Of a stretch of DNA of 64,000 nucleotides, positions 78 to 22,842 are shown in pieces. How positions within the stretch are numbered: position 1 is the first letter of the stretch; each line of letters begins with the position of its first letter. The translations under genes and the position numbers were made by a program. The DNA comes from Bacilli bacterium (GTDB lineage Bacteria > Bacillota_I > Bacilli_A > RFN20 > CAG-826): NCBI GenBank assembly GCA_024408335.1, contig JAKSVB010000005.1, positions 1 through 64,000 of the forward strand. Reading direction: 5' to 3'. Below the pieces are notes generated by a model, which was not told the DNA's origin, did no database searches, and saw only the letters and a list, made by a program, of their open reading frames with translations.

Positions 78-302
78 ACTACTTAGGCATAAGGAGTAAT
101 CAGCTTTAGAAATAAAGGACGATGGAGTTTTTGAGAACAAACAAGTATCTCGTAAAAGAAAATGTCCAAACTTCTATTTTTATTCAAAGCTTGTTTATAT
201 CTAATTGTGAATTAAATCCTTAATATCACGCATCAATCAGGAAACTAAGAAGAAGACAAAATGAGAAGTGAAGCAGTAAGTCGTTCAGAAAGGAAGGAAG
301 GT

Positions 303-1542: not shown

Positions 1543-1849
1543 GTCGTACAATCATCTATGAGTAAAACTTCTTAAAATAAGACTTGATTTTACTTATCTA
1601 ATTTCTTTTTGCCAAAGACTCAAACTTTCAAATACAGTTTTTGACACTTGAAACACTGTTTTCAAATAACGAAATCATCAAGATTCATCGAGTATTAACG
1701 CTTCTTTGAAACTATGCGACATTTTGTCTAAAAGACGAAAATCTTCAAAAAAGTAAGTAAAAAGCACGTCTTTTTGACAAAAGTACATCAAAAGCACATC
1801 AAGATTCCGTAAAACGAAAGGTAATTAAAGTCCTAATATGTTATACATA

Positions 1850-1876
1850 TTGGACTGTTTTGGATATACTTATAGT
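1850..1876 (+). promoter_or_regulatory. Possible promoter of the polysaccharide operon
   Basis: A TTGGAC box at 1850 and a TATAGT box at 1871-1876 are 15 bases apart, about 60 bases before the leader hairpin and 140 bases before the first gene. The spacing is short, so this is only the best candidate in the interval. Confidence 0.35.
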
Positions 1877-1937
1877 GAAACATAGTTTATTAGTGAATTT
1901 TTTTGTAAAGCTAGGCATACAAAAAAAGATAATAAAC

Positions 1938-1995
1938 GCTTCACGTTCGGCCACACTAGGGAGACTAGGTGGTCAGGCGTAGCCAACTCTTTTTT
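1938..1995 (+). promoter_or_regulatory. Structured leader RNA with a terminator-like U tract, probable NusG-paralog (LoaP-type) target
   Basis: GGCCACaCTAG (1949-1959, one bulged A) pairs with CTAGGTGGTC (1965-1974) around the loop GGAGA. The stem extends outward through a C-A mismatch with ACGTT (1943-1947) against GGCGT (1976-1980), then GCT (1938-1940) with AGC (1981-1983). A T-rich run (1988-1995) follows, and then the GGGAAGAAGGGA ribosome site of the NusG-like gene. LoaP proteins of Bacillota are known to bind a hairpin in the 5' leader of their target operon and to suppress intrinsic terminators. The hairpin plus U tract is seen; the role is inferred from the adjacent gene. Confidence 0.65.
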
Positions 1996-2014
1996 AGGGA
2001 AGAAGGGACGATTT

Positions 2015-2581
2015 ATGTATTACGTAATCCACACAATGACAGGTGAAGAAAACAAACTCCTTGATCGTATTGGAGTGTACGTTAATAAAAACACATTCAC
2101 CGATATCTTTGTCCCCGTAAGAAAAAGAGAAAAGAAGATTAACGGTGAATGGACCCTTTACGAGGAACGTTGGTTTCCTGGATATGTATTTGTTGAGACA
2201 ACAACCCCAAGAGAGTTTGTAGCAGAGCTAAGCAAACTCGAAGGATACAAGAGACTTGTTGGATATCGAAATGAAAGACTTGAGAAGATTTCGTATATTC
2301 CTCTTTCTCCATGGGAAGAGAAATATCTCGATAAGCTTCTAAGAAGAGATTCAGTCAACAAATCAAAAACTGTTGATATCACCAAAATCGCAATCGAGGA
2401 AGGCAAGCAAATCAAAGTCATTGATGGGCCTTTGTTTGGACTTGATGCAACAATTGTCAAATATGATCTTCATAAACGTGTAGCGGTTATATCTTTTGAG
2501 ATGTTTGGCCAAAAGGTTGAAACACAAGTTGGCATTGATATCGTCATTGAGAAAGATGACATCAATTATCAAATAAACTAG
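2015..2581 (+). CDS. NusG-family transcription antitermination factor, LoaP/RfaH-like
   Basis: 188 residues with the NusG pattern: an N-terminal NGN domain beginning MYYVIHTMTGEE, with WFPGYVFVE, and a C-terminal KOW domain from about residue 130 (GKQIKVIDGPLFGLDATIVK). It is not housekeeping NusG: it is the first gene of a long polysaccharide operon, the classic place for RfaH, UpxY and LoaP paralogs, which let RNA polymerase read through terminators in long operons. A hairpin-plus-U-tract leader sits directly in front and a second terminator-like hairpin directly behind (2606-2629), so it probably controls its own operon. The ATG at 2015 has GGGAAGAAGGGA upstream. LoaP is the likeliest subgroup given the Bacillota context. 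Confidence 0.85.
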   Translation: MYYVIHTMTGEENKLLDRIGVYVNKNTFTDIFVPVRKREKKINGEWTLYEERWFPGYVFVETTTPREFVAELSKLEGYKRLVGYRNERLEKISYIPLSPWEEKYLDKLLRRDSVNKSKTVDITKIAIEEGKQIKVIDGPLFGLDATIVKYDLHKRVAVISFEMFGQKVETQVGIDIVIEKDDINYQIN

Positions 2582-2605
2582 TAACAAATAACATTCGAAA
2601 CATCA

Positions 2606-2629
2606 GCACGGTTTTCGTGCGTGTTTTTT
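2606..2629 (+). terminator. Terminator-like hairpin between the NusG paralog and the next operon gene
   Basis: GCACG (2606-2610), loop GTTTT, CGTGC (2616-2620) followed by GTGTTTTTT. The stem is short. It lies inside the operon, so an antitermination factor acting on the same transcript would make sense of it. Confidence 0.5.
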
Positions 2630-2701: not shown

Positions 2702-3217
2702 ATGAGCAAAAGCGTTTCTAATCAGGGTGCGCCTTGGCAGTTAAAAGCAAGCTGTAAGAGTTCTAAAGAAATTGAGAGGTATAAAGAAGTGGGCGAGAAA
2801 ACGACAATTGGATATACGGCCGGCGTCTATGACATGTTTCATATTGGTCACCTCAATGTAATCAAAAACGCTAAAGCAAGATGCGATTACTTGATTGTTG
2901 GCGTTTCAACGGACGAAGTGGTTAAAAAGAACAAGAATAAAAGTCCAGTTATCCCATACGAGGAAAGAGTAGCGATTGTTGAGTCCATCAAATACGTCGA
3001 CAAGGTTATATCGCAAGAGAGATATGACATCGAAGGCAAAATCCAAACTGTAATCGACAATCGTATCGATGTTATGTTTGTAGGTTCTGATTGGGAAGGG
3101 ACTGAAAAGTGGAAAAAGATTGAAGAAGAGTTGGCCAAAGTAGGGACAAAGGTAGTTTACCTTCCTCACACCGACGGAATCTCTTCAACTATTTTAAGAG
3201 ATAAGCTTAACAAATAA
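2702..3217 (+). CDS. Cytidylyltransferase-family nucleotidyltransferase (TagD-like)
   Basis: 171 residues from the ATG at 2702 (AAGAAGGA ribosome site); an upstream ATG at 2621 overlaps the terminator region and is less likely. The core has the HxGH signature in AGVYDMFHIGHLN and the C-terminal ISSTILRDKL motif of the glycerol-3-phosphate and phosphocholine cytidylyltransferase group. Compared with TagD (about 130 residues) there is an N-terminal extension of about 40 residues. With a DegT aminotransferase next door and a CDP-alcohol phosphotransferase at 7356, it probably makes a CDP-activated (amino)alcohol phosphate used to decorate the polysaccharide. The substrate cannot be read from sequence. 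Confidence 0.82.
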   Translation: MSKSVSNQGAPWQLKASCKSSKEIERYKEVGEKTTIGYTAGVYDMFHIGHLNVIKNAKARCDYLIVGVSTDEVVKKNKNKSPVIPYEERVAIVESIKYVDKVISQERYDIEGKIQTVIDNRIDVMFVGSDWEGTEKWKKIEEELAKVGTKVVYLPHTDGISSTILRDKLNK

Positions 3218-3229
3218 GGGGCGTTTGAG

Positions 3230-4507
3230 ATGTACAAAAGAAAAGACATTAAACCTTTCGAAAAGAAAGTTTGGTTAGCTTCTCCAACTATGCATGGAGA
3301 TGAACTTAAATGGATGACTGACGCATTCAACAAAAATTGGATGACTACAGCCGGTGAAAATGTAAATGAACTTGAAAAGATTGCAGCCGCATCAGCCGGA
3401 ATGAAATATGCTGTTGCTCTTTGTAACTGCACCTCTGCACTGCACCTCTGTGTTAAGCTTGCCGGTGAAAAGCTATATGGCAAACCTGTTATCAGCCATG
3501 GTGCTCTTGAAGGCAAAAGAGTCTTCTGCTCAGATATGACTTTCGATGCGACTTTAAACCCTGTTGTTTATGAAGGTGGCATCCCAGTTTTTATCGATAT
3601 CGAAGAAACTTCTTGGAATATGGATCCAGTCGCTTTAGAAAAAGCATTTGAAATGTATCCTGAAGTTAAACTTGTTGTCTCTGCTGAGCTTTATGGCTTC
3701 CCTGGAAGAATGGATCGAATCAAGAAGATTTGTGAAAAGCACGGTGCTCTTTTGATTGAAGACGCTGCCGAAGCAATGGGCGCAACAATTGACGGAATTC
3801 AATGCGGTGCATTTGGCGATTATTCAGCAGTCAGCTATAACGGCAACAAAATCATCACAGGTTCATCAGGCGGTTGTTTGTTAACAAATGATATTGAAGT
3901 GGCAAACAAAGCAAGAAAATGGAGCACTCAAGCAAGAGAAAATGCTCCGTGGTATCAACACGAAGAAGTCGGATACAATTATCGCATCTCGAATGTAGTT
4001 GCAGGTGTAGCTCGTGGACAATACCCATACCTTGCTGAGCATATCGCTCAAAAGAAGGCGATCTATGAAAGATACCAAGAAGGTTTAAAAGATCTTCCGA
4101 TCAAGATGAATCCAGTCACTGAAGGCACAGAACCAAACTATTGGCTTTCAGCAATGATTATCGACAAAGAATATATGTGCAAACAAGTTAGAGATGACTC
4201 AAAATCACTTTATATCCCTGAGGAAGGGAAAACATGCCCAACAGAGATTTTAGAAGCCATCGCATCCATCAATGCAGAGGGACGCCCAATCTGGAAACCA
4301 ATGCATATGCAACCAATGTATAGAATGCATGAATGTATTGGCAAAGATGGATCTATCAGAGCTAAAACCAACGCATATATTGCTGGAGGAACAATTGATG
4401 TTGGAGCGGATATCTTCGAAAGAGGATTATGTTTGCCATCAGATAATAAGATGACTCCGGAAGAACAAGACAGAATAATTGGAGTAATTAAAGAGTGTTT
4501 TGAGTGA
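3230..4507 (+). CDS. DegT/DnrJ/EryC1/StrS-family PLP aminotransferase
   Basis: 425 residues, fold type I. The N-terminal WLASPTMHGDELKWMTDAF and NWMTTAGENV segments, LIEDAAEAMGA (cofactor-binding Asp) and the lysine in SYNGNKIITGSSGG are the hallmarks of sugar aminotransferases of the PglE/PseC/DesV group. It likely aminates a keto-sugar or, next to a cytidylyltransferase, a small keto-alcohol phosphate. Twelve bases separate it from the upstream gene, and its TGA overlaps the following ATG, so it is translationally coupled in the operon. Confidence 0.88.
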   Translation: MYKRKDIKPFEKKVWLASPTMHGDELKWMTDAFNKNWMTTAGENVNELEKIAAASAGMKYAVALCNCTSALHLCVKLAGEKLYGKPVISHGALEGKRVFCSDMTFDATLNPVVYEGGIPVFIDIEETSWNMDPVALEKAFEMYPEVKLVVSAELYGFPGRMDRIKKICEKHGALLIEDAAEAMGATIDGIQCGAFGDYSAVSYNGNKIITGSSGGCLLTNDIEVANKARKWSTQARENAPWYQHEEVGYNYRISNVVAGVARGQYPYLAEHIAQKKAIYERYQEGLKDLPIKMNPVTEGTEPNYWLSAMIIDKEYMCKQVRDDSKSLYIPEEGKTCPTEILEAIASINAEGRPIWKPMHMQPMYRMHECIGKDGSIRAKTNAYIAGGTIDVGADIFERGLCLPSDNKMTPEEQDRIIGVIKECFE

Positions 4508-6201
4508 TGGAAAGAAAACAGTTTTTAGACGCCGCAAGAGGCATTGCCATTATTTTTGTTGCTGTATACCATGTAACAACGATCTCCGTCGTTAAAAATT
4601 GGCTTGGATCATTTCAACTTTATGTTTTCTTTTTGATTAGCGGTTTTTTGTTTAGCGATTGTGGCATTCTTCCTTTTTGCAAAAAGAAGTTTAAAAAATT
4701 GATGGTCCCGTATTTTTTATGGGGTTTTGTTTCCTTTCTTTACTTTTTCTTAATAGAACGACACTTTCGTAACGTTTCTTTGACACCTTTCGATTGTGTT
4801 GTTGGCTTGCTTACTGGTGACGAAAGACTTTTGGATTTCAACGCTCCTCTTTGGTTCATACCTTGCTTTCTGTTGGTTGAGTTCCTGTATTTTTTTGCTT
4901 ATAGATTTTTTAATTTCGTTTTTAGACGTTGTAAGAAAAAAGAAGTTTTGAAATATTCGTTTTTGTTTGGTGCAATTCTTTTGCTGTGCTTGTTGTTTGT
5001 TATATTTGATGTAGACTTCAAGTTATTTAGCATTTATAGAGTTCCATTCTTCCTTTTCGCTTTTTTTGTTGGAAATCTCTTTTCAATATTGTCACCTAAT
5101 TATCGTTTCAAAAACAAACGCGTTCGTTTTCTTTTGGTTTTTGTTTCAATTGCGATGTTTTCATTCGGGTTTATACTCTCTTATTATGAATGGGCAACAA
5201 TAATTCCAATAATCTTAAGCATTTTTGCTACTTTTGCGCTCTCGTTTTCAACTATGCATTTTGGAGTGTTAAAAATCATTGGAAAACAGTCATTGTCTGT
5301 TATGCTTTTGCACGGCCCAATTTTTCGAGTGTTAATAGGCGCCGTTTGCATTTTGCCTTATGCAACTGCGGAGGGGATCAGAAATGATATTGTCCTGTCG
5401 TTGATGATTGCGATCGTTTCTGTTTTATTGTGTGTTTTAATCAATTTTGGACTGCAGTTTTTTGAAAATAAAGTGTGGATAAAATATGATATGTACAATA
5501 GATTGTTAAAACGTTTTTTGGACGTCATCGTTTCATCTATTGCTATTTTAGTTTTGTCTCCACTATTCGTTGTACTGATTGTCGTTGGATCAATATGCAT
5601 GACAGGCAATCCGTTTTTTGTTCAAATTAGGCCGGGAAGAAACGATAAAAGCGGAAAAGAAACGTTGTTTAGACTCATAAAATTTAGAACGATGACTAAT
5701 GAGAAAGATAGCGAAGGTAATCTTTTACCAGATGAGCAAAGACTTGGAAAATATGGGGCCTTTTTAAGGTCTACTTCTTTGGATGAACTCCCAGAGCTTA
5801 TTAATATTTTCACTGGCAAAATGTCATTCGTTGGTCCAAGGCCGCAATTAGTCAAAGATCTTGCTTTCATGAATGGCGGGCAAAGAAAGCGACATAGTGT
5901 AAGACCTGGATTGACTGGATTAGCTCAAGTCAACGGTAGAAACAGCATAACATGGGAAAAAAAGTTTGAACTTGACCTTGAATACATAGATAGAGTTTCC
6001 TTTTCGATGGATTGCGAAGTGTTTTTCAAAACGATTTTTAAGGTATTTGTTAGGGAAGGCGTTGTTCGTGAAGGAACGGCATCTGATTTGGATTTCGGAG
6101 ATTGGTTATTGCAAAATGGGACGATAACGAAGCAGGAATACGATTGTAGATTACAACAAGCTAACGATTTGATTTTGAATGGAGCGCAGAAACATGAATA
6201 G
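4507..6201 (+). CDS. Fusion: membrane acyltransferase (AT3) + phosphoglycosyl transferase (bacterial sugar transferase)
   Basis: 564 residues. The first ~330 are a multi-pass Acyltransferase_3 domain: LDAARGIAIIFVAVYHV near the start, then about ten hydrophobic segments. Without a gap this continues at about residue 335 (LLKRFLDVIVSSIAILVLSP) into a complete monotopic PglC/WcaJ-type phosphoglycosyl transferase with the re-entrant helix, FRLIKFRTM, the Asp-Glu pair in STSLDELPELIN and FVGPRPQL. The second half transfers a sugar-1-phosphate to undecaprenyl phosphate to start the repeat unit; the first half would O-acylate a sugar at the membrane. The start ATG 4507 overlaps the previous stop; GTG 4504 is an alternative. 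The fusion is unusual. Confidence 0.9.
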   Translation: MERKQFLDAARGIAIIFVAVYHVTTISVVKNWLGSFQLYVFFLISGFLFSDCGILPFCKKKFKKLMVPYFLWGFVSFLYFFLIERHFRNVSLTPFDCVVGLLTGDERLLDFNAPLWFIPCFLLVEFLYFFAYRFFNFVFRRCKKKEVLKYSFLFGAILLLCLLFVIFDVDFKLFSIYRVPFFLFAFFVGNLFSILSPNYRFKNKRVRFLLVFVSIAMFSFGFILSYYEWATIIPIILSIFATFALSFSTMHFGVLKIIGKQSLSVMLLHGPIFRVLIGAVCILPYATAEGIRNDIVLSLMIAIVSVLLCVLINFGLQFFENKVWIKYDMYNRLLKRFLDVIVSSIAILVLSPLFVVLIVVGSICMTGNPFFVQIRPGRNDKSGKETLFRLIKFRTMTNEKDSEGNLLPDEQRLGKYGAFLRSTSLDELPELINIFTGKMSFVGPRPQLVKDLAFMNGGQRKRHSVRPGLTGLAQVNGRNSITWEKKFELDLEYIDRVSFSMDCEVFFKTIFKVFVREGVVREGTASDLDFGDWLLQNGTITKQEYDCRLQQANDLILNGAQKHE

Positions 6202-7354
6202 CAGAAAAGTGTTGTTGGTCGCAAGTGTCATATCTTTCATTGAATGGTTTAACAAAGAAAACGTTGAGTTTTTGCTTGAAACAATGAAATGCGAAGTCCA
6301 TATTGCATGCAATTTTGATTATATGGAAGATACTGATCCCGAAAGAACAAAAAAATATATTGATTCATTAAAAGAAAAAGGGGTTTTGCTCCACAACATT
6401 CAGTTTGCAAGAAATCCTTTAAATAAAGATAACATAAGAGCCTATAGGGATTTAAAAGCCATTATAAACAAAGAAAATTATTCATTGGTTCATTGCCATA
6501 CGCCTGCGGCATCGATGATTACAAGATTGGCATCTAAGAATGCTAGAAAGCATGGTACGGTAGTAATGTATTCATGCCATGGCTTTCATTTTCATAAATC
6601 ATCTCCCAAAAAAAACTGGCTCATTTATTACCCGATGGAAAAGTGGCTTTCCAAATACTGTGATTATCTAGTAACGATAAACAAAGAAGATTATAGCAGA
6701 GCGAAAAGATTTAGATGCAAGAACGTGAGATACATTCCTGGGGTCGGGGTTGATATTAAAAGAATTCAAGAGTGTAGGATCGACAAGAATGCTTTTAAGC
6801 GAAATCTTGGGCTCCCCGAAGGATCGCTTATGATCTTATCTATTGGGGAATTAATCGAGAGGAAAAACCATCGAGTTATAATTCAGGCTCTAGGGAAGTT
6901 GAAAAGAAAAGACATCTATTATGTAATTTCTGGGAAAGGCCCTTTAAAGAACGAATTGATTTCTATCGCGAGAAAATACGGCATTGAGGATAACGTGATG
7001 TTTTTGGGTTTTAGGAACGATGTTCCTGAATTATGTAATGCTGCTGATATCAGCGCATTCCCTTCGAAAATAGAAGGTCTTGGCTTAGCTGGCATAGAAG
7101 CGATGGCGGCCGGAGTTCCACTGGTAGCCTCAAATGTTCATGGTATACTTGATTATGTAATCGATGGGAAAACGGGATTCGTGCGCAAACCAAATGATGT
7201 TGACGGGTTTGCTCAATCAATACAAACGTTGGCTGACTCAAAAGATTTGAGAGAAGCGATGGCTTCAAATTGTATAGAAGCGGTGAGGCCTTTTGATTTG
7301 AGCAATGCTTTGCCTGCCATGTGGGATATTTATAAGGAGATTTTGGAAAAATAA
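6194..7354 (+). CDS. Glycosyltransferase family 4 (GT-B) protein
   Basis: 386 residues with the GT-B two-domain pattern: N-terminal KVLLVASVISFIEWFNKEN, LVHCHTPAA, then LSIGELIERKNHRVIIQAL and the donor-binding E-x7-E stretch IEGLGLAGIEAMAAGVP, and the VDGFAQSIQTLADS tail. It should add one sugar to the lipid-linked repeat unit on the cytoplasmic face. The ATG at 6194 is preferred over 6179 because GGAG sits nine bases upstream; it overlaps the end of the fusion gene by eight bases. Confidence 0.88.
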   Translation: MNSRKVLLVASVISFIEWFNKENVEFLLETMKCEVHIACNFDYMEDTDPERTKKYIDSLKEKGVLLHNIQFARNPLNKDNIRAYRDLKAIINKENYSLVHCHTPAASMITRLASKNARKHGTVVMYSCHGFHFHKSSPKKNWLIYYPMEKWLSKYCDYLVTINKEDYSRAKRFRCKNVRYIPGVGVDIKRIQECRIDKNAFKRNLGLPEGSLMILSIGELIERKNHRVIIQALGKLKRKDIYYVISGKGPLKNELISIARKYGIEDNVMFLGFRNDVPELCNAADISAFPSKIEGLGLAGIEAMAAGVPLVASNVHGILDYVIDGKTGFVRKPNDVDGFAQSIQTLADSKDLREAMASNCIEAVRPFDLSNALPAMWDIYKEILEK

Positions 7355-7355
7355 C

Positions 7356-8150
7356 ATGAAGTATTCATACAAGCAAATAAAAGATTCATTGACAAAAAAG
7401 AAGAATAGTAGAAGTTCTTTGTGGGTTAGAGCTTGGGTGAGAAGAGTATCATTCCCAATAACGTATTTGTTTATTAACGCTGGTTGGAGCGCAAATATGG
7501 TGTCAATTCTTTCTTGGGTTTTAATCTTTTGCGCATCGGCACTGCTTTGCGTTAATAATTTTTGGTTTATGCTGTCGGGTGTGGTTCTTACTAATTTTTG
7601 GCTTGTTTTGGACTGCGTTGATGGCAATATTGCAAGAGTGAAAAAAAAGAAGAACTACATGGGAGATTTCTTTGATGCTGTAGCCGGATATGGCCCTTTT
7701 ACATTTACAACCATCGGTTTAGGGGTCGCCGCTTATAATACTTCCTCATTGCTTCCCAACGATTATCGTTGGATGTTCGTCCTAATAGCCGGATCAGCAG
7801 CTCTTGCAAATTGCTACATGAGGTTGATTCATCAAAAATACTTAAATTGTTTTTTTGTAGCAAAGAACGAGTTGGGCCAAAACGAAGAGATTTCTTTAAA
7901 AGACACTGACGACAGAAAAAGTTTCGCATATATCAGAGAACAAATTGATAAGAATTTAGGGGTATCAGGCTTGTTTATGCCTTTGCTTTTTGTTGCCCTT
8001 TTCACCAATACATTCGATATAATGGTTTTAGCGTATTCCGCATATTACATATTGTCGTTTATTGCGATTGCTTTCTTATATTGCAAAAAGGCTTCTTTGT
8101 TTGACCAAGGATTACATAACGAAAATAAGCGAGATAATGAAAAACTTTGA
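7356..8150 (+). CDS. CDP-alcohol phosphatidyltransferase-family membrane protein with an incomplete motif
   Basis: 264 residues, about six hydrophobic segments. The family motif begins correctly as D86-C-V-D89-G90-x-x-A93-R94 and continues G103-x-x-x-D107, but the fourth Asp expected at 111 is Gly (MGDFFDAVAGYG). That Asp is the proposed catalytic base of the family. The protein would transfer an alcohol-phosphate from a CDP donor, plausibly the product of the cytidylyltransferase at 2702, or be a divergent or inactive variant. The start at ATG 7356 is one base after the previous stop; the longer frame from 7305 lies inside the upstream gene. Confidence 0.8.
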   Translation: MKYSYKQIKDSLTKKKNSRSSLWVRAWVRRVSFPITYLFINAGWSANMVSILSWVLIFCASALLCVNNFWFMLSGVVLTNFWLVLDCVDGNIARVKKKKNYMGDFFDAVAGYGPFTFTTIGLGVAAYNTSSLLPNDYRWMFVLIAGSAALANCYMRLIHQKYLNCFFVAKNELGQNEEISLKDTDDRKSFAYIREQIDKNLGVSGLFMPLLFVALFTNTFDIMVLAYSAYYILSFIAIAFLYCKKASLFDQGLHNENKRDNEKL

Positions 8151-8979
8151 TGAATCAATGCTTGGGGTTGTTGTTTTAAACTACAACACATTTGAGGCAA
8201 CGCTGAACGTTGTTGAGGAACTAAAAAAGCAAGTTTGTTCTTTCCCTGTTGAGATTTTGATTGTTGATAACAACTCAACAAACGAATCCAAAACTGTTAT
8301 CGAAGAAAGGCAAGGTCAAGGCGGCTATTCATGCATTTTTTTAAAAGAAAATGGAGGGTACGCAAAAGGCAACAATATAGGCCTTTCGTATTTTTCTAAA
8401 AAGAAAGCGAAGTATGCTTTGGTGGTGAACAACGACATAGAATTTGATGATCTGTTTGCTTTGCAAAAGTTATATGACTGCCTTGAATCAAATCCGAAAG
8501 TAGGCTGTGTTTCACCAAAAATTGTTTCACCTTCAGGCAAGGAAGATAAGCCTCTTTATCCAAAAAAGCCTTCTTTTTTTGATTTGACGTTAGGGATTAT
8601 TTGCTACTACAAAAACAGAAATAAAATTAATGATGACAGCACCTTTGAGATTTATGCGCCTAGGGGAAGCTGCATGATGCTGAAGATGGAAGCTTTGGAG
8701 CATGTCAATTACCTAGATGAGAATACTTTTTTGTATTACGAAGAACCGATTCTTGCAGAAAGGATGAGCAAAGCCGGATACAAAACCATTCATAACGGTG
8801 CAGTGAAAATTATTCACAACCACGGAAAAACCATCAAGAGCACTTTTGAAAAGAAGAGAATAATTAAAATAATGATAGAAAGTTATAAGTATTACTTGAA
8901 GGAGTATAGGGGTTTTAATTCTTTAATGATTGCTTTGTGCGTATTCTGCAGAAAAGCAATCCTTTCTGTTCGTTTATAG
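8137..8979 (+). CDS. GT2-family glycosyltransferase (rhamnosyltransferase-like)
   Basis: 280 residues. GVVVLNYNTFEATLNVVEEL and ILIVDNNSTNES are the N-terminal GT-A nucleotide-binding strands; VVNNDIEFDD carries the metal-binding acidic motif; APRGSCMMLKMEAL and YEEPILAERM match rhamnosyltransferase-type GT2 enzymes. Given rmlABCD nearby, transfer of rhamnose from dTDP-L-rhamnose is plausible. ATG 8137 overlaps the upstream gene by 14 bases with a weak ribosome site; ATG 8158 is an alternative start. Confidence 0.85.
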   Translation: MKNFDESMLGVVVLNYNTFEATLNVVEELKKQVCSFPVEILIVDNNSTNESKTVIEERQGQGGYSCIFLKENGGYAKGNNIGLSYFSKKKAKYALVVNNDIEFDDLFALQKLYDCLESNPKVGCVSPKIVSPSGKEDKPLYPKKPSFFDLTLGIICYYKNRNKINDDSTFEIYAPRGSCMMLKMEALEHVNYLDENTFLYYEEPILAERMSKAGYKTIHNGAVKIIHNHGKTIKSTFEKKRIIKIMIESYKYYLKEYRGFNSLMIALCVFCRKAILSVRL

Positions 8980-8990
8980 TTGGAGGTTTT

Positions 8991-10091
8991 ATGAAAGCAT
9001 TAGCAATATATTTGCCACAGTACCATGAAATTGAAGAAAACAATAAATGGTGGGGCAAAGGTTTTACGGAATGGAACACGGTTAAAAGCGCTGTTAAATA
9101 TCTAGACTCCCAATATCAGCCTAAAGAACCTTTGGAAAAGAATTACTACTATTTGGATGACCCTGACGCCAAAGCATTCATTAATCAGGTATCAATGGCG
9201 AAGGAGAACGGCATTTATGGTTTTTGCTTTTACCACTACTGGTTCAAAGGCAATAAAAAAATGCTCCAATTGCCAATGGAGATTTTCTGTAAACACAAAG
9301 AAATTGAGTTTCCATACTGCATTTGCTGGGCAAACGAAGCTTGGAGAAGGACGTGGTATGCAGGCAATTCAGAAATTTTGATAGAACAAGAATACGGAGG
9401 AAAAGCGGATTGGGAAACGCATTACCGCTATTTGTCTTCTTTCTTCAAAGATAAGAGATATATAAAAATTGATAATAAACCATTGGTTGTTATTTATAGA
9501 ACTGCCGCAATAAGCGACCTTAACGAGATGTTGAGCGTTTGGAATTGCATGGCTAAGGAAGACGGTTTTGATGGAATATATTTGATATCCGAAAGAACGT
9601 CATTTGAAATAGACAGAAGAAGCGAGTTGTTTGACGCTTATTGTGATTTTGAGCCTGCATATTCTCTAAGACACAGATTTAACGTTCTTGAAAACTTCAG
9701 TAGAATAATCAAAAGAAGAATTGCTTCGCGCATGAATTCAAAAGGCGTTTCGTTGCGCATAGAAAATGTCATTCCTTACAAAAGATTTATGAAGTACATG
9801 GGGAAAGACAAGCTTTTTTTAGGGAAAAAGGTTTTTCCCGGAGTTTGCCCTGGCTGGGATAATACCCCAAGAAAAGGAACAAAAGGAATGTTTTTGAGTG
9901 GATCCAGCCCTGAATTATATAGAGATGTTTTGAAGGACATTAGTAAAAGATTTGATGATGACACTTTTCTATTCATCAATGCCTGGAACGAATGGAGCGA
10001 AGGGGCATATCTTGAGCCGGACTCATTAAATGAATACGCATATTTAAGAGCGACAAAAGAAGGATTAAACGATGAAAAAAAGGCTGATTAA
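8991..10091 (+). CDS. WbsX-like glycosyltransferase / GH99-like domain protein
   Basis: 366 residues starting MKALAIYLPQYHEIEENNKW, followed by WWGKGFTEWNTVKSA, FCFYHYWFKGNK and, near the end, FINAWNEWSEGAYLEPD. These are the signatures of the WbsX / glycoside-hydrolase-99-like family that sits in O-antigen and capsule loci. The biochemical activity of WbsX proteins is poorly known; both glycosyl transfer and endo-glycosidase activity have been suggested. GGAGG lies seven bases before the ATG at 8991. The stop overlaps the next gene by 20 bases. Confidence 0.87.
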   Translation: MKALAIYLPQYHEIEENNKWWGKGFTEWNTVKSAVKYLDSQYQPKEPLEKNYYYLDDPDAKAFINQVSMAKENGIYGFCFYHYWFKGNKKMLQLPMEIFCKHKEIEFPYCICWANEAWRRTWYAGNSEILIEQEYGGKADWETHYRYLSSFFKDKRYIKIDNKPLVVIYRTAAISDLNEMLSVWNCMAKEDGFDGIYLISERTSFEIDRRSELFDAYCDFEPAYSLRHRFNVLENFSRIIKRRIASRMNSKGVSLRIENVIPYKRFMKYMGKDKLFLGKKVFPGVCPGWDNTPRKGTKGMFLSGSSPELYRDVLKDISKRFDDDTFLFINAWNEWSEGAYLEPDSLNEYAYLRATKEGLNDEKKAD

Positions 10092-11547
10092 TAATTATGC
10101 TTTATCGCTTTCTTCTATAGTACTAGTACTTTTCTTAAATCTTATATCGACGTTGTTTTATAAAATTGAGACTATAAAAGAAGGGTATGCCATCTTTTTT
10201 TATATTTCTGTCGCGGTTTTCGCGTTTATAGTTTTTTCAGCGAGAGCAGTCAATGGGAGATTTACGGTTTATCACATGCTTATTGTCGGCTGCTTTCTGT
10301 TTTATTTTGGAGGGCAGGCATTAGTTGCTTTTGGTTATTTCGACAAGCTTTCTGAAGATAGAGTTTTTTCGATTGTTGATGGTAGAATACCGCTAGAAGC
10401 TTGCATCACATCGATGATACTCATATTGTCAATCTTACTAATGATAAATGCAGGATATTGTTTGTTCTCCAAAACGATTCCTTTTAGCAGCAACAAGCAA
10501 CAAAAAAGTAACACTGCTCTATTACGATGTGGTTTAGTCATCTTTTGGATCACTTTAATTCCTACAATGATGAGTTTATCGAGAAGCGCTTTCTTGAATT
10601 TCACATTGGGACATTTGGGCTATAGGAGCGAAAAAATTGAAGAAACCGGTATTTGGTTCGTTTGCTCGTATTTAATGGGGTGGTTTCGACCAGCCTGCTA
10701 TATGGTTTTGATTGCTTCAAAAGGAAAGAAAAAAGCCTCAATGGTTGGCTATACAGGGATACTTTTATATTGCATATTATATCTTTTGAGTGGATCTAGA
10801 TATCAACTGATCGAAGTTGCGTTTTGTATTTTCTCCATAAGGTATTTGTGGGGTAACAAGAAGCTTAAAAAGCAAACGATTCTTAAATTGATTGCCATTT
10901 TGTTTGCGTTTGGAGTTGCCCTAAAAGCTATCGGCTATTTTAGGAATGATGCATCAAGCACATCTTTTAGTGAAGCTTTGGTTGAAGTCTTTTCAGACAA
11001 CATCTTTTATCAACTGCTTTCTACAACTAGCACAACGTTCACAACAATAAGCAACGTTGTCTTTAGATGTCCTCAAGACATCCCTTTTAATTTCGGAAAG
11101 GGGTATTTAGGTTCGCTTCTTTTTGTTCTTCCTTCGTTTGCCAGACCGGCAGATATGACCATGTTAAATATTGATGTTGAGACCATATTTTCTCCACTCT
11201 ATTATAATTGGACTGTTTCAGGTTATGGATCCTCGTTTGTGGCTGAAATGTTTTTCAATTTTGGCTATTATTCTTTGGCGGTAAGCTTTATTTTAGGGGT
11301 TTTCATTGCCGTGATTTCAGAACGTTTTTATAAAGCGTCGTCTAATAGCGATCACTTTTCCTTCTTTTTCTATATGTATTTGTTTAGCGAGTTATTGTGG
11401 GCGATTAGGAGTGATACATATTTGATTCCTAGACATGTGCTTTTGTATTGTCTGCTACCATACATTTTTTATTTATTATTTAAAAACGCAATGAATAAAG
11501 ATAAAAGTATATATTATTCGACTGTTTTGAGAGAGGAGACTTTATGA
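10072..11547 (+). CDS. Wzy-type oligosaccharide repeat-unit polymerase
   Basis: 491 residues with about twelve hydrophobic helices and a large polar loop near the C-terminal third (residues ~340-400, [12 protein letters not shown]...[12 protein letters not shown]), the arrangement of Wzy polymerases of the O-antigen polysaccharide polymerase family. It would join lipid-linked repeat units outside the membrane; the flippase at 12428 and the initiating transferase at 4507 complete a Wzx/Wzy pathway. Assignment rests on topology, size and context because Wzy sequences are poorly conserved. Confidence 0.75.
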
Positions 11548-12428
11548 AGGGAATAATTTTAGCGGGAGGGTCAGGCACAAGACTGTACCCTCTTACCATA
11601 GTAACGAGCAAACAACTTTTGCCTGTTTATGATAAACCAATGATTTATTATCCTCTTTCCGTGCTTATGATGGCCGGCATTCGAGATATTTTGGTTATTT
11701 CAACTCCTACCGATCTTCCAAGAATGGAGTCTTTGCTCGGAGACGGATCAAAATATGGCATTAACATTTCTTATAAAGAACAACCGTCTCCTGATGGATT
11801 GGCTCAAGCGTTTATCATTGGGGAGGATTTCATCGGCGATGACGCCGTGGCGATGGTGTTAGGGGACAATATTTTTTATGGAGCTGGGTTAGTAGACCAT
11901 TTGAAAAGGTCGGTGAGAAGGGCTCTTGAAGGGCAGGCAACCATTTACGGCTATTACGTTAACGATCCAGAAAGGTTTGGAATTGTCGAGTTGGATAATA
12001 ATGGTAATGCGATTTCAATAGAAGAAAAGCCAGCAAATCCTAAGTCGAATTATTGTGTTACGGGCCTCTATTTTTATCCTTCAGGGGTTTCAGAAAAGGC
12101 AAAAAGAGTGGAGCCTTCGCCAAGAGGAGAACTTGAGATAACAACTCTTAACAACATGTATCTTAGAGAAAAAAATCTCCATGTGACGACTTTAGGCAGG
12201 GGATATTCATGGCTTGATACTGGAACCCATGAATCGCTGGTTGAAGCCTCTAATTACATCAAAATTATCGAAGACCATCAAGGACTAAAGGTTTGTTGTC
12301 CGGAAGAGATCTCGTATAAGAATGGGTGGATTTCTAAGGAAACACTTATTAAACAAGGGGAATTGATGAAAAAGAATCAATATGGACAGCATCTTCTCAA
12401 TGTTGCAAACGATAAGATTAAGTATTAA
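11544..12428 (+). CDS. rmlA: Glucose-1-phosphate thymidylyltransferase RmlA
   Basis: 294 residues, the usual length. [16 protein letters not shown] is the nucleotide-binding loop, followed by [41 protein letters not shown] and LDTGTHESL, all diagnostic of RmlA. It makes dTDP-glucose, the first step to dTDP-L-rhamnose. It overlaps the upstream gene by four bases and its stop overlaps the next start (TAATG), so it is translated within the operon although the other rml genes lie downstream. Confidence 0.97.
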
Positions 12429-13894
12429 TGGAAAAACAAAGCGTCAGGAAGAACTATTTTTATAACACCGCACTCCAATTTGCGTTACTTGCAATCCCTA
12501 TCCTTCTGATCCCTTATGTCTCTAGGGTCTTAGGTGTTGAAAAAGTTGGTGATTACAGTTTCTATCTTGCCATGGTTACTTATTTTTCTATGTTTGCAGT
12601 TTTGGGAACGGGGGCATATGGGCAAAGAGAAATTGCCTATTGCAGAAACGATGTAGAAGAACTTAGGATCTCCTTTTTTAATACATTCTTCTTTCGCGTC
12701 ATCACTTCCGCGCTTTCGATAGGAGTCTATTTTCTATACCTGTTTTTAGCGAATTCAATCAATGCTGTATGTACGATATTTGCACTCAATATCTTAAATG
12801 TCGTTTTTGATGTCACATGGTTTTTCCAAGGCGTAGAAGACTTTAAACAAATAGTCTTTAAAAACCTATTTTTTAAATTATTGAACTTAGTGTTGGTTTT
12901 CCTGTTTGTCAAGAAACCTTCGGATTTGTGGGTGTATGTATTGATAATGTGCGGAACAACTTTGATGGGGAATGTTTCTACGTGGACTCGTCTAAAAAAA
13001 TATATAAAGTTTGATGTTTCTGGGGTAAATCCATTCAACAACATAAAAGAAATTGTTTTGGTTTTTCTACCGACAATAGCAATTCAGGTTTACACCGTTC
13101 TAGACAAGTCCATGATAGGGTGGATAACAAATTCTTCTTATGCTAATGGCTGTTATGACAGGGCCGAACAGATTTCTAGAGTCGCTCTTACACTCGTTAC
13201 TTCCGTTGCCGCTGTTATTTTGCCTAGAGTGTCTAATTCTTTTAAAAATGGAGATATCGAAACTGCAAAGGAATATATTTATAAAGCGTTCGCTTTTGTT
13301 TGGATGCTTTCAGTTCCGATTACCTTCGGTCTTTTAGCCTGCAGCGATTCATTCATTCCTCTATTTTTAGGGGACGGATACGATGATGCCGCGCTTTTGT
13401 TAAAAATTTTTTCACCTTTAGTGATATTCGTTAGCTTGTCATATGTCATAGGCCTTTCTTATCTTATTTCTACTAAACAGCAAAATGTTTATACGATTGC
13501 GGTTGTGATTTCCGCAATCGTAAATTTGATTATGAATTTGCTTTTGATTCCGAAGTTGTCGGCTGTTGGAGCTGCTATCGCTAGCGTTACTGCAGAATTC
13601 GTTGGATGCTCATTTCAAATCGTCTATTGCATCCTAAAAAAACAACTGTCCTTTAAAAAACTATTCAAAAACGCGTGGAAGTATTGCTTGTTTGGAATCG
13701 CCATGTTTTTTTCTATATTTAAGTTACCAATCCTCTTTGAAAACCCGATAATTGGGTTAATTGTTACGATTTTTGTAGGTTTTTTTATATATGTGTTTTT
13801 GCTTCTGATAACAAGAGACAAAATGGTTTTTGGGGAAATATCAGTGATTATAAATAAAATAAAAAAAAGGAGAGAACATGGACAAAACGATTAA
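12428..13894 (+). CDS. Wzx-type flippase (polysaccharide biosynthesis / MATE-like)
   Basis: 488 residues with about 14 transmembrane helices. It begins KNYFYNTALQFALLAIPILL, then PYVSRVLGVEKVGDYSFYLA and AYGQREIAYCRN, typical of Polysacc_synt flippases of Gram-positive capsule clusters. It should move the undecaprenyl-linked repeat unit across the membrane to Wzy. The start overlaps the rmlA stop. Confidence 0.9.
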   Translation: MEKQSVRKNYFYNTALQFALLAIPILLIPYVSRVLGVEKVGDYSFYLAMVTYFSMFAVLGTGAYGQREIAYCRNDVEELRISFFNTFFFRVITSALSIGVYFLYLFLANSINAVCTIFALNILNVVFDVTWFFQGVEDFKQIVFKNLFFKLLNLVLVFLFVKKPSDLWVYVLIMCGTTLMGNVSTWTRLKKYIKFDVSGVNPFNNIKEIVLVFLPTIAIQVYTVLDKSMIGWITNSSYANGCYDRAEQISRVALTLVTSVAAVILPRVSNSFKNGDIETAKEYIYKAFAFVWMLSVPITFGLLACSDSFIPLFLGDGYDDAALLLKIFSPLVIFVSLSYVIGLSYLISTKQQNVYTIAVVISAIVNLIMNLLLIPKLSAVGAAIASVTAEFVGCSFQIVYCILKKQLSFKKLFKNAWKYCLFGIAMFFSIFKLPILFENPIIGLIVTIFVGFFIYVFLLLITRDKMVFGEISVIINKIKKRREHGQND

Positions 13895-14441
13895 TCATTT
13901 CACATTCCACGAGACCTCGATCGAAGGAGTCTTCAAAATCGATGTTAAGAAATATGGTGACAATCGCGGTTACTTCATGGAAACATATAAGGAATCAGAT
14001 TTCCATGCGGCTGGCATAATGAACGTGTTCATCCAGAACAACCAATCGAAATCGAAGAAAGGCGTCCTTCGTGGGCTTCATTTTCAAAAGACCTTTCCGC
14101 AAGCGAAACTTGTGCGTTGCATTGAAGGGGAAGTGTTTGATGTTGCTGCAGACTTAAGGAAAGGATCTAAGACATATGGCAAGTGGGAAGGAGTTGTTCT
14201 TTCCGCTGAAAAAGGCAATCAATTCATGATTCCTAGAGGTTTTGCGCATGGGTTTGTAGTTTTATCTGAAATAGCCACATTCTGCTATAAATGCGATGAA
14301 CTATATCATCCTGAAGATGAAGGTGGAATCATGTGGAATGATGAATCTGTTGGCATTGAATGGCCTGAAGTAGTAGAGATTCTTTTGTCGGGAAAAGATA
14401 AAAAGCACCCTTCTTTGAAAGAAAGCAAAATAGAGTTTTAA
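13878..14441 (+). CDS. rmlC: dTDP-4-dehydrorhamnose 3,5-epimerase RmlC, copy 1
   Basis: 187 residues; cupin enzyme of dTDP-rhamnose synthesis. ETSIEGVFKIDVKKYGDNRG, VLRGLHFQ (active-site His), LVRCIEGEVFDVAADLRKGS and IPRGFAHGFVVLS are RmlC motifs. By eye about 88% of residues match the second copy at 18507, with the middle nearly identical and both ends diverged. It is the last gene before a foreign-looking cassette; the second copy lies on the far side of that cassette. AAAAGGAGAG ribosome site. Confidence 0.95.
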   Translation: MDKTINHFTFHETSIEGVFKIDVKKYGDNRGYFMETYKESDFHAAGIMNVFIQNNQSKSKKGVLRGLHFQKTFPQAKLVRCIEGEVFDVAADLRKGSKTYGKWEGVVLSAEKGNQFMIPRGFAHGFVVLSEIATFCYKCDELYHPEDEGGIMWNDESVGIEWPEVVEILLSGKDKKHPSLKESKIEF

Positions 14442-14453
14442 GGACTATGGCTA

Positions 14454-14500
14454 CCGCCTTAAAAGGTGGCCTCCTGTAATAAGGGCACCATTGTTTGGTG
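14454..14500 (+). promoter_or_regulatory. Two small hairpins in the leader of the cyclase cassette
   Basis: CCGCCTT/AAGGTGG (14454-14469) and CACCA/TGGTG (14486-14500) form adjacent small hairpins between rmlC and the first cassette gene. The second is followed only by TTTG, so it would be a weak terminator. They may be a terminator of the rhamnose genes or a leader element. Confidence 0.3.
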
Positions 14501-14571
14501 TTTGTATTAGAGGAGAATTGATTTAAATTAAAGAGAAAGGCTTAATATTGAAAAAGGAGGGGATGGCTAAG

Positions 14572-15105
14572 ATGAATATTTTGATTCCATTTAAAGTTTT
14601 AAAAAAACACCCTATTATTCATCTTTTGTGGTTTGTCTTCGTTCCTTTTTTGTCTTCCGTTGGCGTCATCTTTAACCTATTAAATTTCAATTTGGAAGGA
14701 GTATATAGAGATATCTCTTTGGGTTTCTTCTACTGTGTCTCCTTATCTATTACTCTATCTATAGTTTACGATATAGTTGTGGATTTATGTGAACATCATA
14801 TAAACCATCTGGAAAAGCGTTTTTTGAATTATAAGGTGGTTTGTTTGCTTGCGCTAATATCCGTAATAATTGCCTTGATGTTGTTTCAATTTACTCTAGT
14901 TGGAAGGTTTATTGTTATTCAAATTGCTTTGCATATAGTAAGTATTTTAATTGCATTTTATACTCGACTAGTCACAAAAATGGATGCCTATTTGAATGAA
15001 AATTGTGAGTATATCGAAGAAGAAAACGATAGACTAAAAAGTGAAATAAAAAAATCAAAGAAAGGCGGAAAAAAAGGTCCTGATGGAGGTGAATTAAAGA
15101 TATGA
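14572..15105 (+). CDS. Membrane protein of unknown family, first gene of the cyclase cassette
   Basis: 177 residues, family not recognised. Four hydrophobic segments (around residues 15-35, 45-65, 80-100 and 105-125) are followed by a charged C-terminal tail rich in Lys and Glu (ENDRLKSEIKKSKKGGKKG) that may form a short coiled coil and face the cytoplasm. AGGAGG lies 11 bases before ATG 14572; ATG 14563 and TTG 14548 are in frame. Its stop overlaps the start of the DGQHR gene, so the two are coupled and probably act together. Confidence 0.65.
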   Translation: MNILIPFKVLKKHPIIHLLWFVFVPFLSSVGVIFNLLNFNLEGVYRDISLGFFYCVSLSITLSIVYDIVVDLCEHHINHLEKRFLNYKVVCLLALISVIIALMLFQFTLVGRFIVIQIALHIVSILIAFYTRLVTKMDAYLNENCEYIEEENDRLKSEIKKSKKGGKKGPDGGELKI

Positions 15106-16160
15106 TGAAATTATTGTTGCTTAGAATTGACCAACCAATAGGGACTTTTTACTATGGGAAGTTAAGAAGCGACTTGCTTAGTTCGATTTCGTATTCTAAC
15201 GAAAGAAAACTAAATTCTGGAAATCAGAGAAGACTAAGGCAAGAAAGACTGAAAGAAATAGAAAAGTATTGTTCAGATCCAGATGCCGCTTTTCCTACAC
15301 CAATTATCATTGCAATTAGTGATACAGCTGAATTAGTCCAATCGTCGTTCGCGCCAGATTTATATGAATATGCTTTTGAAGAGAGCGAATTAAATGGCGA
15401 AGTTCTAGATGGACAACATAGATTAAACGGAATCATTAAGAGCGGTATGCAGATTGAATTGCCGGTTGTTTTCATGTTTAATTTAACCGAAGAAGAAAAG
15501 GCTTATATTTTTTCTACAATAAATAGCAATCAACAAAAAGTTGATAAATCTTTAATTTATGACTTATTTGAGTTGAGTGAATCTAGAAGTCCTTATAAAA
15601 CATGTCATGACATTGCAAGAATGATGAATTCTGATGTAGACTCTCCTTTTTATTCTAGATTAAAGATGCTTGAAACAAGGACATCTGAGTATGAGTCGCT
15701 GTCTCAAGGAACATTTGTTCGCTATTTATCAACATTAATCACAAGTAGCCATAACTCAGATTATATAGACATTAAGAACGGAAAGAAAATAGAGGATGAT
15801 TCGAAATATCCATTAAGATTTTTCTTCATTAATAATAATGATGATGTTATCTATAAAATTTTATTCAATTGTTTTTGTGCTGCCAAGGCTGCTTTTTTAA
15901 TTCAATGGAATCATCCAAAGCAATATATTTTGACAAAAACTACAGGATTCGGTGCAATTATCAAGTCATTAAAAGTTATTCTTCCAAAAATGCTTTCAGA
16001 ACATGATGTTAGTCAGAAAAAATTTAGTGACTTATTTACAAGTTTAAAAAATCTTTTTGATGAAGAAGGGTTGGATTTTGTTTCGACGAATTTTCCACCA
16101 AGTGAAATGGGAGAACAAAAACTATCTAGTTATATCATTGTAGCTTTTGAAAAAATCTAA
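15102..16160 (+). CDS. DGQHR-domain protein (DndB/ParB-like fold)
   Basis: 352 residues. The sequence LNGEVLDGQHRLNGI (near residue 105) is the signature of the DGQHR family, which is related to the ParB/sulfiredoxin fold and includes DndB of DNA phosphorothioation systems and other defence-island proteins. Around it are PTPIIIAISD before and IFSTINSNQQKVDKSL after, as in the family. No dnd or dpt genes are near, so its partner here is probably the cyclase system rather than DNA modification. The GGAGG ribosome site lies in the overlap with the upstream gene. Confidence 0.8.
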   Translation: MMKLLLLRIDQPIGTFYYGKLRSDLLSSISYSNERKLNSGNQRRLRQERLKEIEKYCSDPDAAFPTPIIIAISDTAELVQSSFAPDLYEYAFEESELNGEVLDGQHRLNGIIKSGMQIELPVVFMFNLTEEEKAYIFSTINSNQQKVDKSLIYDLFELSESRSPYKTCHDIARMMNSDVDSPFYSRLKMLETRTSEYESLSQGTFVRYLSTLITSSHNSDYIDIKNGKKIEDDSKYPLRFFFINNNDDVIYKILFNCFCAAKAAFLIQWNHPKQYILTKTTGFGAIIKSLKVILPKMLSEHDVSQKKFSDLFTSLKNLFDEEGLDFVSTNFPPSEMGEQKLSSYIIVAFEKI

Positions 16161-16194
16161 TTTATAAAAAGAATGGATAAAAAGGGGTTGATTT

Positions 16195-16938
16195 GTGAGT
16201 TACGATTATAAAAATGGAAAGAAGCGTATTCAGAGTATTTTAAATTCTAAAACCGAAATTATGATCACTGAGTCAATTCCTAAATCTGAAGAAGAATTTA
16301 CATATGAAAACGGAATAAAATCGTGGGTTGGTGCAATATTTGTTGATATAGTTGATTCTACTAGTCTTTTTAAGGATTATAAAGATGAAAAATTGGCTCG
16401 TATTATTAGGGCTTTTTGCAGTGAAGTGATTCGAATCCTCAAAGAAAACGAAAAGTATGTCCAAATTGGAATTAGGGGAGATTGTGTTTATGCAATTTAT
16501 TCTGCTCCTAGACAGGATGATTTAAAACGAATTTTATCTGATTCAATAATGATTAATACTTTTCATAAGATGTTTTGTCATATTTTGAATAATAATTCAT
16601 TTAAAAGTTTTGATATTGGTATTGGATTAGGTGCATCTGAAGATCTAATAATTAAAGCAGGTCAAAAAGGAAGCGGAATTAATGATTATGTTTGGATTGG
16701 ATCAGCCGTTGTAAATGCTTCGAAGCTTTCTTCTGAAGGCAATAGAAACAATTTTAAATCAATTGTTATTGATTCATGTTTTTATAACAATATTAAAAAT
16801 TATTCTGCTAATGATGATTATAAATATAGTCATTATTTTACACAAAAGTATTCAAGTAAACTTGGCGAATATGTCTATGATTGTAATATGATTACTATTG
16901 ACTTTCATGACTGGATAGAAGGTGGAATGAATGGCTAA
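16195..16938 (+). CDS. Class III nucleotide cyclase, probable Pycsar cyclase (PycC-like)
   Basis: 247 residues with a single class III catalytic domain. The first metal Asp is D51 in GAIFVDIVDSTSLF and the second is D96 in IGIRGDCVYAIY; IGIGLGASED and YVWIGSAVVNASKLSSEGNR are the later conserved blocks. There are no fused sensor domains. It overlaps by eight bases a gene for a Pycsar-type membrane effector, so a pyrimidine cyclase that makes cCMP or cUMP on phage infection is the best assignment; adenylate or guanylate cyclase activity is not excluded by sequence. GTG start at 16195 with an AGGGG ribosome site. Confidence 0.85.
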   Translation: MSYDYKNGKKRIQSILNSKTEIMITESIPKSEEEFTYENGIKSWVGAIFVDIVDSTSLFKDYKDEKLARIIRAFCSEVIRILKENEKYVQIGIRGDCVYAIYSAPRQDDLKRILSDSIMINTFHKMFCHILNNNSFKSFDIGIGLGASEDLIIKAGQKGSGINDYVWIGSAVVNASKLSSEGNRNNFKSIVIDSCFYNNIKNYSANDDYKYSHYFTQKYSSKLGEYVYDCNMITIDFHDWIEGGMNG

Positions 16939-17446
16939 TAACAAGCGCTCAGATTTAGAAAATCTTTTAGAAGGTATTAAAAACCAGATCTCTACATTTG
17001 ACCAAAAAGCTGGTACACTAATACCAACAATAGGAATTATTTATGCTTTATTGATTGACATAATAACGCTATTTAGCAGCGATCCATTTGTCCAATCGGA
17101 AAGCAAATGGAAATTATGGGCATATGTTTTTTATTTTGCAATGATTCTGTTTGGCGTAGTTTCGGTAACATGTTTTGTTGCTGTTATTTTTCCAAGGAAG
17201 AGACAGAGCGACAATGAAATACATCCTGATTATTATTTGGATATCAATGAATTAGATAAAGATGATTTTGATTTAAAGTTTTCGCAATTTGAGAAGAGCG
17301 AAGATGTACTTGAAAAGCAAGTTTTAGCTAATGCGAATATATGTTCCATTAAACATACGTTATTAAGAAGTGGAATTTTTGCACTGGTGCCATATGTTTT
17401 GTCCATCGCACTTTTAATTATCAGCATATTTAATGTTATGTTTTAA
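16931..17446 (+). CDS. Pycsar-type transmembrane effector (PycTM-like)
   Basis: 171 residues. The N-terminal helix with ISTFDQKAGTLIPTIGIIYA is the recurrent 'D-x-KA' start of the PycTM/Pycsar effector family, followed by a membrane helix, a second helix (YVFYFAMILFGVVSVTCFVA), a polar cytoplasmic middle and a C-terminal helix (LVPYVLSIALLIISIFNV). Known PycTM proteins bind cyclic pyrimidine nucleotides and damage the membrane, stopping growth of infected cells. The eight-base overlap with the cyclase ties the pair together. Confidence 0.82.
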   Translation: MANNKRSDLENLLEGIKNQISTFDQKAGTLIPTIGIIYALLIDIITLFSSDPFVQSESKWKLWAYVFYFAMILFGVVSVTCFVAVIFPRKRQSDNEIHPDYYLDINELDKDDFDLKFSQFEKSEDVLEKQVLANANICSIKHTLLRSGIFALVPYVLSIALLIISIFNVMF

Positions 17447-17478
17447 AAACAACAATACCAACAATTGGAGGAAAACAA

Positions 17479-21684: not shown

Positions 21685-21794
21685 TTCGAAAGACGAAAGA
21701 GAAAATATTTGCCCAATATTATCAGCTTACCTTCAAACTTTAATGCTTTTGAAGAGAAGCGGTGAGTTAAGTGAATGAAAGGAAGGAAAAATCT

Positions 21795-22427: not shown

Positions 22428-22431
22428 AATT

Positions 22432-22839: not shown

Positions 22840-22842
22840 TAT

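What the first reader, a model, noticed from the sequence alone, without database searches (positions are those of the whole stretch)
1938..2629. LoaP-type regulatory module: leader hairpin, terminator, NusG paralog, second terminator
A long, almost fully paired hairpin with bulged A and purine loop ends in a U tract immediately before a NusG paralog, and another hairpin-U tract follows that gene. LoaP of Bacillota binds a leader hairpin and suppresses terminators. Here the terminators flank the factor's own gene, implying autogenous control of a >10-kb polysaccharide operon.
Basis: partly seen in the sequence, partly recalled or inferred. Interest (0 to 1): 0.72.

Follow-up and report, generated by a model that had tools for sequence, protein, structure and literature searches.

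The report
Self-controlling LoaP switch before capsule operon
A gut-type bacterium carries, in front of a sugar-coat gene cluster, a gene for a LoaP antitermination protein together with a conserved RNA hairpin that this protein probably grips to switch on its own gene and the cluster; the hairpin lies just upstream of the one first noticed, and relatives share a second, pause-like signal that seems undescribed.

Summary
The module is real and LoaP-type, but its parts are assigned differently. The protein (2015-2581) sits in a strongly supported LoaP clade, far from housekeeping NusG. A covariance model built without the window finds it (37.1 bits, E 3.8e-5), as the only hit in the genome. Ten of its 15 pairs change on both sides among five sequences. 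All 22 LoaP genes found in this order carry the element. It matches a second conserved feature of LoaP leaders: a stem-loop abutting a box, GGCGAAGC-NURCC, with a pyrimidine tail, which looks like a hairpin-stabilised pause or loading site. The terminator after loaP is plausible but not conserved. Best explanation: LoaP binds its leader hairpin, loads at the pause and reads through terminators of its own ~18-kb polysaccharide operon (autogenous). New variant of a known kind: this LoaP clade has a different hairpin apex, associated with a KOW R-to-L change.

The parts
1842..1870 (+). possible promoter (TATACA-17-TATACT); would start the transcript ~8 nt before the LoaP-leader hairpin
   Evidence: 9 of 12 matches, no more frequent than chance; inference only
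1885..1937 (+). LoaP-leader hairpin: GUUUAUUA/UAAUAAAC outer stem, UUUUUUUGUA/UACAAAAAAA middle stem, AA/A internal loop, GC-UAG-GC apex; conserved core at 1905-1920
   Evidence: -22.2 kcal/mol; z -4.3
1949..1974 (+). pause-type hairpin abutting the box (GGCCAC-A-CUAG / GGAGA / CUAGGUGGUC, -13.4 kcal/mol)
   Evidence: a stem-loop ends at the box start in LoaP leaders generally
1976..1995 (+). GGCGUAGCCAACUCUUUUUU: window version of the GGCGAAGC-NURCC box plus pyrimidine tail of LoaP leaders
2015..2581 (+). loaP (188 aa; NGN and KOW domains, YDLHKR in KOW)
2597..2626 (+). intrinsic-terminator-like hairpin and U6 between loaP and the next gene
   Evidence: not conserved in relatives
2702..3217 (+). 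cytidylyltransferase-like gene (tagD/gct type)
3230..19936 (+). same-strand polysaccharide genes: DegT aminotransferase, acyl/sugar transferase, glycosyltransferases, WbsX, Wzy, flippase, rmlA/C/B/D, with a defence-like insert at 14548-17446

Best explanation
An autogenous LoaP antitermination module. RNA polymerase transcribes a short leader whose first structure (1885-1937) is the LoaP-binding hairpin; it then meets a hairpin plus GGCGUAGC box (1949-1995) that probably pauses it and lets LoaP load. LoaP-modified polymerase then reads through loaP's downstream terminator (about 2597-2626) and other weak terminators of the ~18-kb polysaccharide operon. Because loaP is the first gene, this is a positive-feedback switch serving a single operon. 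Shown here: LoaP clade membership, the conserved covarying hairpin, its uniqueness in the genome, and the conserved stem-loop plus box in relatives. Inferred: binding, pausing, loading, antitermination, feedback.
For: Tree: window protein sister to L136 (99/88), inside LoaP (100/93 and 96/92 sets), on the other side of a 1.54 branch (100/100) from core NusG and UpxY/RfaH; 33-39% identity to LoaPs of its family against 22% to its own NusG; separate core NusG gene on C12. Hairpin: model R2 built without the window hits 1883-1942, 37.1 bits, E 3.8e-5, only hit in the genome; motif once in 1.35 Mb, 0.01 expected in the window; 10 of 15 pairs change on both sides, score 0.547 against 0.196 +/- 0.067 shuffled and at most 0.25 slid; 5' and 3' flanks pair with their own partner, 0 of 20000 permutations. 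Box: GGCGAAGC is the commonest 8-mer of LoaP leaders, 21 of 83 against a background top of 6, at most 9; a stem-loop ends at it (mean -5 to -6 kcal/mol against about -1.9 at 6-14 nt upstream). Known LoaP needs a leader hairpin and is helped by a downstream pause (PMC12691694).
Against: The protein scores 119.9 bits, under the NCBIfam LoaP cut-off of 125. The hairpin apex (GC-UAG-GC) is not a literal UNCG loop. The family-only model R1 does not find the window hairpin. No canonical terminator lies between hairpin and loaP, unlike dfn; the one after loaP is not conserved. No expression or binding data.
Confidence: 0.75

Rival explanations
1. One reading: the 1938-1995 hairpin plus U-run is a leader intrinsic terminator that LoaP suppresses, and it is itself the LoaP-binding hairpin.
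For: Strong hairpin and a U6 run before loaP; dfn has a terminator in its leader (PMC12691694).
Against: 6 nt (CAACUC) separate stem and U-run; terminator scan negative; the same hairpin-box-pyrimidine layout recurs in LoaP leaders with a ~12-nt box between stem and pyrimidines; the covarying LoaP element is a different hairpin.
Confidence: 0.15
2. The NusG paralog acts by DNA (ops-like, RfaH-type) recruitment at the GGCGUAGC box, and the upstream hairpin is secondary.
For: The box resembles E. coli ops GGCGGTAGCGTG (sequence from memory), and its consensus is the commonest 8-mer of LoaP leaders.
Against: The upstream hairpin covaries and its class goes with a KOW residue; published LoaP binds RNA and showed only non-specific low-affinity binding to single-stranded DNA of the region upstream of the dfn hairpin (PMC12691694); the box lacks the Y-G pause end of ops.
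Confidence: 0.1
3. The leader element is a relic: a mobile polysaccharide locus carried loaP in, and it is not functional here.
For: LoaP is found in 1 of 37 genomes of the genus; an IS110 transposase lies just upstream.
Against: Intact 188-aa ORF, intact covarying hairpin and box, intact operon.
Confidence: 0.05

Closest known systems
LoaP of Bacillus velezensis with the dfn/mln leader hairpin (PMC12691694 and its refs 53-55)
   Same: NusG paralog in a LoaP clade; leader hairpin; pause-like feature downstream of the hairpin; long biosynthetic operon with terminators
   Different: here loaP is the first gene of its own target operon; hairpin apex is AA/A + GC-UAG-GC instead of the published UNCG type; no canonical terminator between hairpin and first gene; a conserved GGCGAAGC-type box that I did not find in the parts of the held paper that I read
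UpxY antiterminators of Bacteroides capsule operons
   Same: paralog encoded as first gene of a capsule operon, acts in its own leader (PMC7819879)
   Different: separate branch of the tree; Bacteroidota; no such RNA hairpin known to me
RfaH with ops
   Same: box GGCGUAGC resembles ops GGCGGTAGC; loading at a paused polymerase
   Different: RfaH reads non-template DNA; here a covarying RNA hairpin is the conserved element; KOW modelled as strands (low confidence)

Membership tests
LoaP | groups with LoaP and not with housekeeping NusG, RfaH or UpxY | tested here: met
   inside LoaP sets 100/93 and 96/92; core NusG and UpxY/RfaH behind a 100/100 branch
LoaP | NCBIfam NF033641 curated cut-off (125 bits) | tested here: inconclusive
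   119.9 bits, just below the cut-off (so not reached); nusG equivalog 57 against 135.7; core NusGs of another family reach 101-113, so the model separates poorly and the tree decides
LoaP | NGN plus KOW domains, additional to a core nusG | tested here: met
   (model pLDDT only 65)
LoaP | conserved structured RNA hairpin in the 5' leader of the target operon | tested here: met
LoaP | hairpin of the published UNCG tetraloop type (a trait of the B. velezensis system, not shown to define all LoaPs) | tested here: not met
   apex is GC-UAG-GC with AA/A internal loop; a variant shared by this LoaP clade; the dfn sequence itself was not available for comparison
LoaP | sub-micromolar specific RNA binding; NusA-antagonising read-through | not testable with these tools
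   needs protein and in-vitro transcription
LoaP | intrinsic terminator(s) downstream of the hairpin | tested here: inconclusive
   terminator-like site after loaP, none between hairpin and loaP; not conserved
UpxY / RfaH | clusters with UpxY or RfaH; model cut-offs | tested here: not met
   UpxY 43 of 100 bits, RfaH 36.5 of 144.5

The most novel reading that the evidence does not exclude
LoaP leaders across Bacillota and some Actinomycetota are bipartite: a LoaP-binding RNA hairpin followed by a hairpin-abutted, ops-like GGCGAAGC-NURCC box with a pyrimidine tail that pauses polymerase for loading. RNA-hairpin recognition has split into two classes (CGUCGC...GUCGCG and RAAGC...GCAY) together with one KOW residue (R or L/F), so LoaP would combine RfaH-like pause loading with RNA recognition.
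Probability: 0.4. Interest if true: 0.7.

Novelty: new variant of a known kind. Interest (0 to 1): 0.52.

Why it matters
[quoted passage not shown] A conserved pause-like box next to the hairpin gives a concrete, cheap test of the loading step; the two hairpin classes with a matching KOW residue make RNA specificity testable by swaps; and the element (absent from Rfam) can be used to find LoaP-controlled operons.

Tried and rejected
Rfam on window and 20 relatives: no family. Model R1 from the family's 5-nt-loop leaders misses the window element, so a second model from the 3-nt-loop leaders was needed. MAFFT alignment of all leaders slips in the loop and was not used for pair counts. The conserved-terminator-after-loaP idea fails in relatives. 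Other box matches in the genome look like chance: none lies in a recognisable leader, and the one whose reading frame was listed (start of contig C1) is antisense within a long ORF. First genome-contig scan with the single protein found nothing. Plasmid search found only distant NusG-like genes. The promoter-like site is at chance level. AlphaFold model too weak (pLDDT 65) to search with. Papers 53 and 55 of PMC12691694 are not held, so the box may already be described there.

Full report
What is there. The window is contig C14 (1-64000) of a 1.35-Mb genome; LoaP-bearing relatives are titled Bacilli, Erysipelotrichaceae or Bacillales MAGs. At 2015-2581 lies a 188-aa NusG paralog. NCBIfam's LoaP model scores it 119.9 bits (cut-off 125), the nusG equivalog only 57 (cut-off 135.7). 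The genome's own housekeeping NusG is elsewhere (C12). Because some core NusGs of another family also score 101-113 with the LoaP model, I built a tree: the window protein is sister to the LoaP of L136 (same order, another family; 99/88) inside a LoaP clade, and all core NusG and UpxY/RfaH rows lie behind one long branch (100/100). The best PDB match is 8f5g, which I believe from memory to be a LoaP-RNA complex; the file calls it NusG. Within the genus, LoaP was found only in this genome (1 of 37), so the locus is probably a variable, exchanged polysaccharide cluster.

The leader hairpin. Upstream of LoaP genes in this family and in further Bacilli and Lachnospiraceae there is a conserved element about 75-145 nt before the start codon: a distal stem of variable sequence and a conserved apex R-AA-GC-(3 to 5 nt, 7 in L020)-GC-A-Y. 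In the window this is 1885-1937, with core GUAAAGCUAGGCAUAC (1905-1920), identical in L136, whose stem is different. The relaxed motif occurs once in the window (0.01 expected) and once in the whole genome. A covariance model made from four other genomes only (L136, L148, L149, L150) finds the window element with 37.1 bits, E 3.8e-5, next best 15.5 bits, and as the only hit in the genome. On the resulting alignment 10 of 15 pairs change on both sides; covariation score 0.547 against 0.196 +/- 0.067 for shuffles and at most 0.25 for slid pairings; note that this alignment was fitted to the structure. Independently, in 18 leaders the 5' flank pairs best with its own 3' flank: 330 against 220.5 +/- 12.7, 0 of 20000 permutations. 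A model trained only on the 5-nt-loop leaders of the family does not find the window element.

It is real (1938-1983, bulged A, GGAGA loop, -22.2 kcal/mol, z -4.3), but its U-run starts 6 nt after the stem and it is not reported as a terminator. In LoaP leaders from Lachnospiraceae, other Clostridia, Coriobacteriales and Erysipelotrichales the commonest 8-mer is GGCGAAGC (21 of 83 leaders; background top 6 on average, 9 at most), with consensus GGCGAAGC-N-U-R-C-C-Y-U-U-U-U. A stem-loop ends at the start of this box in most of the 47 leaders examined: mean -5 to -6 kcal/mol for stems ending within a few nt of it, about -1.9 for stems ending 6-14 nt upstream (the box pattern was drawn up by eye for the family's divergent versions). 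The window has GGCGUAGCCAACUCUUUUUU at 1976-1995 right after the stem-loop 1949-1974; L149 has GCCGUAGGCAACUCUUUUU, in which the small GGC/GCC stem is kept by a swap. So the U-run reads as the tail of a conserved pause- or loading-type element rather than as a terminator. That step is inference: no pausing was measured. Published dfn work finds a pause between hairpin and terminator that helps LoaP in vivo (PMC12691694).

Two hairpin classes. Other LoaPs (L049, L050, L051, L052, L137, L138, L146, L147, L175 and others) have a CGUCGC-NNN-GUCGCG type hairpin instead. Class I leaders go with R before the KOW HKR motif (16 of 16 counting L091 by eye), class II with L or F (28 plus L081 by eye; L056, which also matches the loose class II pattern, is doubtful, and L067 was left out). 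Class II is essentially one clade, so this is one or few events, but it suggests co-evolution of RNA and protein. In L137 and L143 the element sits between loaP and the next gene, so it marks the target operon and not loaP as such.

Operon and terminator. loaP is followed by a terminator-like hairpin (about 2597-2626), then same-strand polysaccharide genes to 19936. Relatives do not conserve a terminator after loaP. In L024, L044 and L045 the gene after loaP reads as the DegT aminotransferase found at window 3230-4507 (by eye). The region has 24 terminator-like sites against 13.4 +/- 3.5 in shuffles, mostly weak.

Mechanism. Most likely: LoaP binds hairpin 1885-1937 in the nascent RNA, joins the polymerase during a pause at the box, and the modified complex reads through the terminator after loaP and weak ones beyond. 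As loaP lies inside its own target and the genome has a single element, this is a dedicated positive-feedback switch. Shown: protein class, covarying element, uniqueness, recurrent architecture. Inferred: binding, pausing, loading, read-through, feedback.

Novelty. LoaP, its leader hairpin and its adjacency to polysaccharide clusters are known (PMC12691694). New as far as the held literature shows: the class II hairpin with its KOW residue, the GGCGAAGC box abutted by a stem-loop, and this autogenous layout. Two key papers on the hairpin are not held, so priority is not assured.

Noticed in passing
window 14548-17446: Inside the polysaccharide operon: a DndB-like gene and a weak guanylate-cyclase match with a Pycsar effector (PycTM) gene, i.e. 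a Pycsar-like defence cassette, lying between two rmlC copies (13878-14441 and 18507-19070, 78% identical DNA).
   Followed up: partly
window 21771-23409: Two TIR/ThsB-like genes just downstream of the polysaccharide cluster, hinting at a defence island.
   Followed up: no
window 261-1436: IS110-family (RNA-guided) transposase directly upstream of the LoaP leader, near the start of the contig.
   Followed up: no
window 1987-2007: The U-rich run can pair with the purine-rich ribosome-binding region GAAGAAGGG before loaP (fold), a possible translational layer.
   Followed up: no
L137 and L143, just after loaP: LoaP element (class I hairpin plus GGCGAAGCC box) lies between loaP and the next gene, so it can be used without loaP directly behind it.
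   Followed up: partly
NCBIfam NF033641: The LoaP model scores some housekeeping NusGs of Bacilli at 101-113 bits, close to true LoaPs.
   Followed up: yes
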